64,000 nucleotides of DNA from NCBI RefSeq assembly GCF_004153195.1, contig NZ_SEMC01000003.1, positions 62,001 through 126,000 on the forward strand, read 5' to 3'. Shown one piece after another: positions 8,341-61,082 of this stretch. The notes under the pieces were generated by a model. The model ran no database searches and was not told where the DNA came from. It worked only from the letters and a program-made list of their open reading frames with translations. The number at the start of each line of letters is the position of its first letter. Position 1 is the first letter of the stretch. The stretch comes from Sporolactobacillus sp. THM19-2 (GTDB lineage Bacteria; Bacillota; Bacilli; Bacillales; Sporolactobacillaceae). The position numbers were made by a program, and so were the translations under genes.

Positions 8341-8515
8341 GGCATTCATACAAGTGGCGTGGTCAGCCCGGAAAGGCACAGATCTGCAGGCTTCGGCTGA
8401 AGAAAGGCATCAATCAAAAAAGCAGGGGTTCACACATGCCGCCGGAGTGCTGGAAGATCTGTCTGGAAGTGTTTGATCAGACCCTCTGGAAATTTATCGC
8501 CATAATTCAAGATTT

Positions 8516-9034
8516 ATCAGCCGGGTCGACATGTGATTTCAGCCGGGCTACGACTTATTTCAGCGGGCTACACGTCATTTCAGCCGGCTAGAAAATATAT
8601 CAGCCGATTTCCACGCCATTTCAGCCGGCTAGAAAATATATCAGCCAGTCTCCACGTCATTTCAGCCGGCTAGAAAATATATCAGCGGGTTTCCACGTCA
8701 TTTCAGCCGGCTAGAAAATATATCAGCCGGTTTCCACGTCATTTCAGCGGGCTAGAAAATATATCAGCCGGTTTCCACGTCATTTCAGCCGGGCGGAAAA
8801 TATATCAGCCGGTTTCCACGTCATTTCAGCCGGCTAGAAAATATATCAGCCGGTCTCCACGTCATTTCAGCCGGCTAGAAAATATATCAGCCGATTTCCA
8901 GTTGATTTCAGCCGGCTAGAAAATATATCAGCCGGTCTACACGTCATTTCAGCCGGCTAGAAAATATATCAGCCGGTCTACACGCCATTTCAGCCGGCTA
9001 GAAAATATATCAGCCGGAGGTAACCTCCGGCTGA
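8516..9034. repeat. Tandem array, 41-bp period, 11 core copies
   Basis: Core units start at 8581, 8622, 8663, 8704, 8745, 8786, 8827, 8868, 8909, 8950 and 8991, exactly 41 bases apart. Each unit is two half-units, CAGCCGGCTAGAAAATATAT and a second 21-base half beginning CAGCCGG, running through TTTCCACGTCA or TCTACACGTCA and ending in TTT. Three degenerate half-units (8517, 8539, 8560) precede the core, and the array ends in the inverted repeat CAGCCGGAGG...CCTCCGGCTG at 9011-9033. Each first half contains the palindrome AGCCGGCT. No open reading frame runs through it. It lies between the convergent 3' ends of cls and an araC-type gene. Confidence 0.95.
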
Positions 9035-11944: not shown

Positions 11945-12028
11945 GCGGATATCTCCTTAAATGAAATGAAAGATCTCTTCCTATCATAACTGAAATGGAG
12001 GCATTAGAAAAGGGATTTATGTGGTGAG

Positions 12029-12587
12029 CTTTTTCGATGTTGATTTTTTTCATCACGCCAACATAAGTGGCGCAACTTTTCCGGATTGTCAAAGGTTTGC
12101 CTTCCTGACGTATTGCGATCCCTTTCAAAGTAGCCACAGGCCATCTCCCAACTTGTGAGGGCCTTCACCTCACTTTCTTTTAAATAGGATGTTTTGTCCT
12201 GAGAGCAAAAAGTAAAATAAGCGGAAATTTTCCGGTTAGGGGCAGAACGGCATTCTTTTCGGGGGGGATATAAGCGGAAACTATCCGATTATGCCAAACA
12301 AAAAGCTCTATTTTCCAGCTTTTCAAAGCAATAGGCGGAAGCTCTCCGTCTATGTTAGCTTATTTTTCATTTTATTTTCTAAATAAGCGAAAGTTTTCCG
12401 CCTATTCATCTGATCAGGCGCTTCACCTGATCCCCACAACCGATAAGAGCGGAACCCAGGTCACCTTCCCCAGTATTTTTCATATTGGGGTAAATCGTCC
12501 CTAACTTTTGACCGTACGAAAATTTGCCTTCTACTTTGGAAGAAAATAATTTCTGAACCCTTAACGACACAAGGGGTTCCCCACATC
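12029..12587 (+). repeat. Dispersed non-coding repeat, copy A (559 bp)
   Basis: Aligns end to end with the reverse complement of 60518-61072 (copy B). Shared exact blocks include TTTTGTCCTGAGAGCAAAAAG, CCGGTTAGGGGCAGAACGG and GACACAAGGGGTTCCCCACATC, with diverged sequence between. Both copies hold several short hairpins of the form AAGCGGAAnnnTTCCGCTT (in this copy near 12218, 12269, 12334 and 12386). The arms differ between copies but mostly still pair. Frames are broken throughout, so it does not encode a protein. No terminal inverted repeats or target-site duplications are evident. It fills the gap between the dedA-type gene and glutaredoxin. Confidence 0.88.
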
Positions 12588-12640
12588 GCAATGAGCTCGT
12601 GATCCTCGTGATCCTATCGTTAAATCCTGAAAAAAAGCTA

Positions 12641-60348: not shown

Positions 60349-60517
60349 TTTATACTATAAGGAAAGTACAAATTTTGTCAGGTTACAGGATCAGACTGAA
60401 CTCCGGCAACTCGCCTCCCGGCAAATTTTCTTCAGTATACCCCTGCTTCCCGCGAAACTCCCTCTTTGGCAGGATCAGCTTGCCTGATCGCCGTTTTCGT
60501 GTAAAAGAGCCTTTTAG

Positions 60518-61072
60518 GATGTGGGGAACCCCTTGTGTCAGAGGGGATGATCAGGAGTTTTGAAGTGATCTTCTGCCAAAACAGGGGCAAATCTAAAGTC
60601 GCAGGGTCAAAAATAAGGAAGGAGAGTACCCGGGATCCACTCTTGTCGGTTGGGGATCAGGTTCGTGCATGATCAGATGAATAGGCGGAAAAATTCCGCT
60701 TACTTAAGAAATTCGATCTAAAAACAGTTAAAATAGACGGAGAGATTCCGCTTATTGACTGGAGAAATGGAAAATGGAGCTTTTTTCCTGGCATAATCGG
60801 AAAATTTCCGATTATATACACTCGGAAAGATTTCCGTTCTGCCCCTAACCGGAAAATATCCGCTTATTTTCCTTTTTGCTCTCAGGACAAAACATCTGAT
60901 GACAAGTTAAGTGAGATGAAAACCCCTGCAAGATGGAAGATAGTCTGCGGCAGCCTCGAAAAGGATCACAAACCGCTGAAGAAGATTTGCCCGGCCAGGA
61001 GGGCAAACCTTTGGCAATCTGGTAAAGTTGCACCCCTTAGATTGGCGCGAAAAAAAATGAACATCGTCAAAA
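60518..61072 (-). repeat. Dispersed non-coding repeat, copy B (555 bp), inverted
   Basis: Reverse complement matches copy A at 12029-12587 along its whole length, with blocks of perfect identity up to 22 bases and diverged hairpins between. Copy B hairpins include CGGAAAATTTCCG-type palindromes near 60690, 60745, 60797 and 60850. The element stops about ten bases before the clpP promoter and CtsR box. It contains short open frames (for example from 60916), but these are not kept in copy A. Confidence 0.88.
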
Positions 61073-61082
61073 GCCCAAAATA

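What the first reader, a model, noticed from the sequence alone, without database searches (positions are those of the whole stretch)
12029..12587. Two 555-559-bp non-coding elements in inverted orientation 48 kb apart
Copy A (12029-12587, plus) and copy B (60518-61072, minus) align over their whole length. Exact blocks up to 22 bases alternate with diverged stretches that still form AAGCGGAA/TTCCGCTT-type hairpins. Frames are not kept, and no transposase, terminal inverted repeat or target duplication is visible. Similar length, whole-length conservation and paired changes in hairpin arms suggest a structured RNA or a protein-binding, chromosome-organising element rather than a decayed gene. 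Both copies lie beside redox or proteolysis genes (glutaredoxin, clpP) with little spacing.
Basis: seen in the sequence. Interest (0 to 1): 0.75.

Follow-up and report, generated by a model that had tools for sequence, protein, structure and literature searches.

The report
Nuclease-paired four-site repeat arrays
The two sequences are old copies of a repeat family found in many Bacillus-like bacteria, built around four evenly spaced palindromic sites that elsewhere sit beside a partner DNA-cutting enzyme, which points to a possibly undescribed kind of selfish DNA.

Summary
The repeat is real: copies A (12026-12598, +) and B (60507-61076, -) are 76% identical, two of about 35 places in this 3.0-Mb Sporolactobacillus genome. 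Each holds a ~193-bp core of four near-palindromic sites, two per orientation, centres mostly 51-52/61.5/51 bp apart in 174 arrays.

The core occurs across Bacillales. In 25 of 25 fetched loci it lies at the 3' end of a ~230-codon gene predicted to encode a Vsr-like homing-endonuclease fold plus a winged helix. Distant homologues (33-40% identical) often carry arrays of the same geometry but other sequence. All 24 sampled genomes with the close gene have the core, against 36 of 373 without (genus-stratified p about 1.5e-5). The window copies keep ~50 bp of that gene's end; the gene was not found in two genomes of this species.

Hairpin arms do not covary: a protein-binding array, not an RNA. 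Best reading: non-autonomous selfish arrays spread in trans by a dedicated nuclease, analogous to REPIN-RAYT with an unrelated enzyme. Mobilisation is inferred.

The parts
12026..12598 (+). copy A, full long element (573 bp)
   Evidence: ends from the terminal inverted repeats and cross-copy alignment
12026..12042 (+). left terminal inverted repeat of copy A (one base shorter than the consensus)
12581..12598 (-). right terminal inverted repeat of copy A
   Evidence: 0 mismatches to the right-end consensus; exact hit at G000:C50:74581-74598
12214..12406 (+). four-site core array of copy A
   Evidence: nhmmer hit 12211-12417, E 1e-46, with a profile of 114 arrays loci
12218..12238 (+). site 1 TAAGCGGAAATTTTCCGGTTA
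   Evidence: read directly
12271..12291 (+). site 2
   Evidence: read directly
12330..12353 (-). site 3 (opposite orientation)
   Evidence: read directly; orientation by comparison with the consensus
12383..12406 (-). site 4 (opposite orientation)
   Evidence: read directly; orientation by comparison with the consensus
12407..12456 (-). fossil 3' end of the partner nuclease gene (about the last 16 codons, frame broken)
   Evidence: array-plus-gene profile matches to model position 251 of 883
60507..61076 (-). copy B, full long element (570 bp)
61059..61076 (-). left terminal inverted repeat of copy B
   Evidence: L010
60507..60524 (+). right terminal inverted repeat of copy B
   Evidence: L010
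60680..60870 (-). four-site core array of copy B (sites about 60846-60866, 60794-60814, 60733-60756, 60680-60703)
   Evidence: nhmmer hit 60873-60671, E 9.4e-46; sites read directly
60632..60679 (+). fossil 3' end of the partner nuclease gene in copy B
   Evidence: array-plus-gene profile matches to model position 252 of 883

Best explanation
Copies A and B are fossil, non-autonomous members of a dispersed repeat family. Its unit is a ~193-bp array of four near-palindromic ~21-24-bp protein-binding sites, two in one orientation and two in the other, centres about 51/62/51 bp apart. A dedicated nuclease, encoded beside one array in genomes that still have it, is proposed to bind the array through its C-terminal winged helix; its Vsr-like homing-endonuclease domain would then nick or cut, so that array-sized DNA is copied to new intergenic sites by repair, without a fixed target duplication. 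SHOWN: the family, its geometry, the gene-array junction, the co-occurrence of gene and arrays across genomes, purifying selection on the gene, one lineage-specific gain, and fossil gene ends in the window copies. INFERRED: binding, cutting, and that this causes the dispersal. In this Sporolactobacillus the gene appears lost, and about 19 arrays belong to a longer ~570-bp type that has its own terminal inverted repeats where the ends survive.
For: Junction: one locus per genome was fetched for the 24 genomes with a close homologue (>=74% identical over the match); 24 of 24 have the array at the gene's 3' end (~170 bp away in L183), 25 of 25 with the Sporolactobacillus locus L293; 0 of 26 distant-homologue loci have this array type. 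Distant homologues: 15 of 26 loci show the N7-type geometry on the 3' side, 0 of 25 close loci; 78 sites in 3' flanks against 26 in 5' flanks; regular arrays are spaced 51/56/51 by site start, equal to centres 51/62/51. Association: core in 24 of 24 close-gene genomes against 36 of 373 others (Fisher p 1.9e-22); within 14 genera 22 of 22 against 22 of 63, p about 1.5e-5, and with >=5 hits 19 of 22 against 12 of 63. General site pattern >=8 hits in 34 of 47 genomes with any homologue, 18 of 350 without. Gene remnants: among 101 arrays found by a site-1 word scan that did not use the gene, 4 run through the gene, 96 end within ~95 bp of the array, 1 slightly further. Gain: 0 of 29 sister loci have a site where G249 has two arrays; ~420 bp of the unit recurs at 90% at two other G249 places. 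Selection: median dN/dS 0.126, 153 pairs. Fold.
Against: No movement or activity was observed. No target-duplication signal in 174 arrays. 18 of 350 genomes without a homologue at E 1e-10 have >=8 sites, this one included, and 13 of 47 with one have <8. Of 7 dispersed arrays only 1 matched its own genome's gene-linked array best, so cognate pairing is shown only between the two lineages. By the strict rule 11 of 26 distant loci lack the geometry on the 3' side and 6 of 26 have it on the 5' side. Several close homologues are truncated or carry in-frame stops, and second copies in some genomes (for example G085, G326) were not fetched. Foldseek gave no PDB match below E 0.001 for either model; DUF559 scores under its cut-off for the first member (18.6 against 20.6 bits).
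Confidence: 0.7

Rival explanations
1. The nuclease and arrays form a host system (DNA repair, replication or chromosome-organising sites) in which arrays are kept by selection for host function, not by selfish spread.
For: Regular geometry, purifying selection on the gene, arrays nearly always outside reading frames: 1 of 75 inside.
Against: Patchy presence within genera; apparent movement of the gene between lineages; gene not found in this species while arrays are diverged; gain at a locus empty in 29 of 29 sister loci examined.
Confidence: 0.15
2. The window copies are ordinary MITEs of a conventional insertion sequence with matching terminal inverted repeats; the four-site core is a passenger.
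For: Long copies in this genome have terminal inverted repeats, 15 of 18 matching; a left end was recognised in 10 loci, a right end in 9, both in 5. One copy (L007) is flanked by a direct repeat ATTCAGGATTTT, by my reading.
Against: No insertion sequence with these ends was found; only one family (ISL3) was searched, and its single fragment has no such end nearby. Among 57 other relative genomes, 8 had hits, covering only about query 147-440 of 581 (at most 10 candidates scored per genome). It cannot explain the core in other genera or its tie to the nuclease gene. It may still hold for the outer shell.
Confidence: 0.12
3. A structured non-coding RNA family.
For: Four near-palindromes that can be drawn as hairpins; slight excess of double changes at a few pairs (for example 4 seen against 1.8 expected).
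Against: Pairing fractions match independence over 174 arrays and over the 73 not chosen by a site-1 word; a G/G mismatch in 60 of those 73 at one site-1 position; no Rfam match beyond a chance one; the same 51-bp spacing in two lineages with different site sequence.
Confidence: 0.02

Closest known systems
REPIN-RAYT (REP doublets with REP-associated tyrosine transposase), PMC3116915
   Same: Short dispersed intergenic palindromic units in inverted arrangement; a repeat cluster beside each gene of a low-copy enzyme; enzyme lineages with their own repeat type (passages read).
   Different: The linked gene here is a Vsr-like/DUF559-like nuclease with a winged helix, not a tyrosine transposase; four sites at fixed spacing rather than a doublet; no covariation of arms.
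Vsr-like homing endonucleases such as I-Bth0305I (PDB 3r3p)
   Different: Linked to a repeated intergenic array; an added C-terminal winged helix; arrays at many non-allelic sites.
MITEs of Bacilli such as bcr1
   Same: Non-coding, intergenic, multi-copy.
   [quoted passage not shown] the paper was not held); no linked nuclease is known to me (recalled). Sequences were not compared.
Stem-loop repeat families of PMC2267715
   Same: Unnamed intergenic repeat families exist in Bacilli (Bant-1, Bhal-1, Bhal-2; passages seen).
   Different: Listed sizes are 72, 74 and 76 bp; no enzyme link in the passages seen; sequences were not compared.

Membership tests
REPIN-RAYT | linked enzyme is an IS200/IS605-like tyrosine transposase (RAYT) | tested here: not met
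   The gene at the array in 25 of 25 loci matches DUF559 and winged-helix families weakly and no tyrosine transposase at E 0.1; its nuclease-domain model resembles I-Bth0305I. RAYTs elsewhere in these genomes were not searched.
REPIN-RAYT | repeats dispersed in intergenic space, with a copy beside the enzyme gene | tested here: met
   1 of 75 arrays inside an ORF of 120+ codons; junction in 25 of 25 loci.
REPIN-RAYT | palindromes recognised as single-strand hairpins | tested here: inconclusive
   No covariation of arms; recognition itself could not be tested.
Vsr-like homing endonuclease | Vsr-like PD-(D/E)XK catalytic fold | tested here: met
Vsr-like homing endonuclease | encoded within an intron, intein or split gene and homing to the allelic site | tested here: inconclusive
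   By my reading of ORF translations the fetched genes stand between ordinary genes, and arrays occupy many sites; introns and inteins were not searched for.
MITE of a DDE insertion sequence | terminal inverted repeats shared with a transposase-encoding element, and target duplication | tested here: inconclusive
   Terminal inverted repeats in the long G000 copies; no partner element found in a search of one family; no clear duplication except perhaps L007.
structured RNA family | covarying base pairs | tested here: not met
   Paired fraction within 0.05 (174 arrays) or 0.07 (73 arrays) of the independence expectation at 48 pairs.

The most novel reading that the evidence does not exclude
A convergent counterpart of REPIN-RAYT in Bacillales: a homing-endonuclease-type nuclease with a winged helix disperses strictly spaced four-site DNA arrays through the chromosome in trans, separate nuclease lineages each carrying their own array sequence, the gene moving between genera and the arrays outliving it as fossils.
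Probability: 0.6. Interest if true: 0.9.

Novelty: categorically new. Interest (0 to 1): 0.82.

Why it matters
The one well-studied pairing of a dedicated enzyme with short dispersed palindromic repeats that I know of in bacteria is REP/REPIN with RAYT (recalled; passages of PMC3116915 read). A second, unrelated solution using a homing-endonuclease-type nuclease in many Bacillales genomes would show that such within-genome repeat populations evolved more than once, would explain a widespread class of intergenic repeats in Bacillus-like genera, and would offer a testable system with defined sites.

Tried and rejected
Rejected: structured RNA; Rfam families; plasmid or phage cargo: no DNA match with the window element or a Bacillaceae array, no nuclease in phages, one distant match in the plasmid collection, whose 3' flank has no array of the two types here but does show a tandem repeat of another near-palindrome. 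Fold search with the whole protein showed mainly the winged helix, and with viral models one match under E 0.001, an uncharacterised phage protein, so the nuclease part was predicted alone. Paper searches by site sequence found 0 papers; topic searches listed nothing that describes this pairing. Only open-licence PMC papers are held.

Full report
What was checked. Copies A and B are a real repeat: 346/457 identities plus an exact 22-base block, E 1.7e-86 in the window-against-itself search. The ends are 12026-12598 (+) and 60507-61076 (-), taken from terminal inverted repeats seen on comparing copies. In one search a left end was recognised in 10 distinct loci, a right end in 9, both in 5; the consensus ends match at 15 of 18. 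The window lies in a 3.0-Mb draft genome. The genus is Sporolactobacillus: same-genus genome G011 and the genome of locus L087, titled Sporolactobacillus sp. STSJ-5, give one match at identical coordinates.

The family in this genome. DNA searches with A and with B find about 35 places plus two short fragments, my count after merging rows: about 19 of the long type, some partial, and about 16 shorter and more diverged. In the window a profile search finds only A and B. Of 57 other relative genomes 8 have hits, covering about query 147-440 of 581, with at most 10 candidates scored per genome. At the site of copy A, 12 other species of the genus have both flanking genes and no core at E 0.01; a second genome of this species, G406, has it.

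Anatomy of the core. The core (12214-12406 in A, 60680-60870 in B) is four near-palindromes of 21-24 bases, the first two opposite in orientation to the last two. In 174 arrays the centre distances are 51 or 52 in 158, 61.5 in 152, and 51 in 140. Of these arrays 101 come from an exact-word scan on site 1, 23 from loci fetched with the nuclease and 50 from other fetches. The main left boundary is at AAAATAAGCGG; a second class of copies stays similar about 60 bp further out.

Not an RNA. Over the 174 arrays the fraction that can pair is within 0.05 of the independence expectation at all 48 pairs scored, with no correction for relatedness. Site 1 was partly fixed by the search word, so I repeated this with the 73 arrays not found by it: largest difference 0.07; a G/G mismatch at one site-1 position in 60 of 73; at one site-2 position 39 G/G against 26 C/G. 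A few pairs show a slight excess of double changes (4 against 1.8 or 1.9 expected). Rfam gives one chance match (E 0.54) for A and none for a Bacillaceae array. Half-sites conserved independently fit DNA read by a protein.

The partner gene. The scan stopped at 120 stretches; the 80 named rows include Neobacillus, Cytobacillus, Mesobacillus, Rossellomorea, Sporolactobacillus and Ammoniphilus. In four of the 120 (L115, L126, L138, L163) and in one relative (L037) the core is followed, on the other strand, by a gene of about 230 codons whose 3' end meets site 4. Five further copies keep only its last 24-36 codons. Of the 101 scan-found arrays 4 run through the gene, 96 end within about 95 bp past the array and 1 slightly further; the 23 arrays from nuclease-fetched loci are full by selection in 17 cases. 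Both window copies keep about 50 bp of the gene end (model positions 251 and 252 of 883), with the frame broken in A.

Association. A protein search of 397 genomes of the order found homologues at E 1e-10 in 47; in 24 a close one (74% or more identical over the match) is present, several of them truncated or with in-frame stops. One locus for each of the 24 was fetched, and all 24 have the array at the gene's 3' end, in L183 with about 170 bp between. With the intact STSJ-5 gene it is 25 of 25; none of 26 distant-homologue loci has this type. Second copies in some genomes were not fetched. The core pattern (up to 3 mismatches) occurs in 60 of 397 genomes: all 24 with the close gene, 36 of 373 without (Fisher p 1.9e-22). 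Stratified by 14 genera with both kinds it is 22 of 22 against 22 of 63, p about 1.5e-5; with 5 or more hits, 19 of 22 against 12 of 63. Two of the 24 were left out as the only sampled members of their genus.

A second lineage, same geometry. Distant homologues (33-40% identical) have arrays of CGGA-N7-TCCG-N-TATTT sites. With up to 2 mismatches I count 78 sites in 3' flanks and 26 in 5' flanks of 26 loci; regular arrays are spaced 51/56/51 by start, equal to 51/62/51 between centres because the pairs face each other. By a strict rule 15 of 26 have the geometry on the 3' side, 6 of 26 on the 5' side, 0 of 25 close loci on the 3' side. The central bases differ: TCCTCRT in the listed G383 sites, CAT-start centres in several others. 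The general pattern reaches 337 hits in one genome; 34 of 47 homologue-bearing genomes have 8 or more against 18 of 350 others, with the backward control at 0-3 per strand (p 1.7e-25). Thirteen positive genomes fall below 8. Of the 18 negative ones above it, 15 carry the near-type core (5 or more hits), perhaps arrays outliving the gene, which is not shown. Five genomes (G022, G145, G159, G172, G196) carry both lineages.

Movement. In G249 an intergenic gap holds two tandem arrays; the orthologous gap in 29 of 29 sister loci examined (of 35 other genomes searched) has no site within 2 mismatches, and about 420 bp of the unit recurs at 90% identity at two other G249 places. No target duplication emerged over 174 arrays. 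Of 75 arrays with enough context, from 120 loci, 1 lay in an ORF of 120+ codons; flanking ORFs were convergent in 21, codirectional in 43, divergent in 9, and 1 was at an edge. Of 7 dispersed arrays compared with all gene-linked ones, 1 matched its own genome's best.

In this species. The nuclease was not found in the window's genome (E 1) nor in the one-contig genome G406 of the species, nor in seven other genomes of the eleven searched; G011 and G429, evidently the same STSJ-5 genome, have it intact and G006 has fragments. Copy A differs between G000 and G406 at 2 of 191 array sites, 27 of 375 other element sites and 8 of 622 flanking sites, perhaps through exchange between copies.

Interpretation. 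The array with its nuclease works like a REPIN with its RAYT (passages of PMC3116915), but the enzyme is unrelated, so it is not a member. That the nuclease disperses the arrays is inference from linkage, co-occurrence, shared geometry and one clear gain. The outer ~570-bp shell in this species is a separate, unsolved matter.

Literature. Searches by site sequence and topic listed no description of this pairing in the open-licence library. Of six papers I read passages only.

Noticed in passing
window 8509-9030: Tandem repeat of a ~41-bp unit (CAGCCGGCTAGAAAATATATCAGCCGG-like, about 12 units) ending in a terminator-like hairpin.
   Followed up: partly
L180, L184, L186, L188, L189, L197: An ORF with CxxC pairs (zinc-ribbon-like by my reading) lies upstream of the nuclease in these 6 of the 28 loci printed; its link to the system is unknown.
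   Followed up: no
L187, L188, L189, L191, L197: In 5 of the 28 loci the nuclease lies next to an rlmH-like gene (named by recall), recalled as the SCC integration site in staphylococci.
   Followed up: partly
L229 (G022 distant nuclease, 3' flank): The gene is followed by a tandem expansion, period 82 bp, of a different palindromic unit, possibly a third array type.
   Followed up: partly
L292 (Paenibacillus cellulosilyticus), 3' flank of the homologue: The distant homologue is followed by a tandem repeat of yet another near-palindrome (GGAGCGAAAAATCGCC-like), perhaps a further array type.
   Followed up: no
L014, L018 (G000), L032, L042, L045: A second kind of left flank (ACTTAYGATACGGTTCACCGTAACGCAGCAAAATGAG-like) next to the core in several genomes.
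   Followed up: no
window 12026-12598 against L209 (G406): Between two genomes of the species, differences cluster in the non-array parts of copy A: 27 of 375, against 2 of 191 in the array and 8 of 622 in the flanks.
   Followed up: partly
G093, G230, G074: Genomes with 65, 15 and 11 general site hits but no nuclease match at E 1e-10 and no near-type core hit; they may hold a more distant partner.
   Followed up: no
G000 C62:39443-39574 (L177): A fragment of an ISL3-family transposase with a stop, the only match to that family in this genome.
   Followed up: partly
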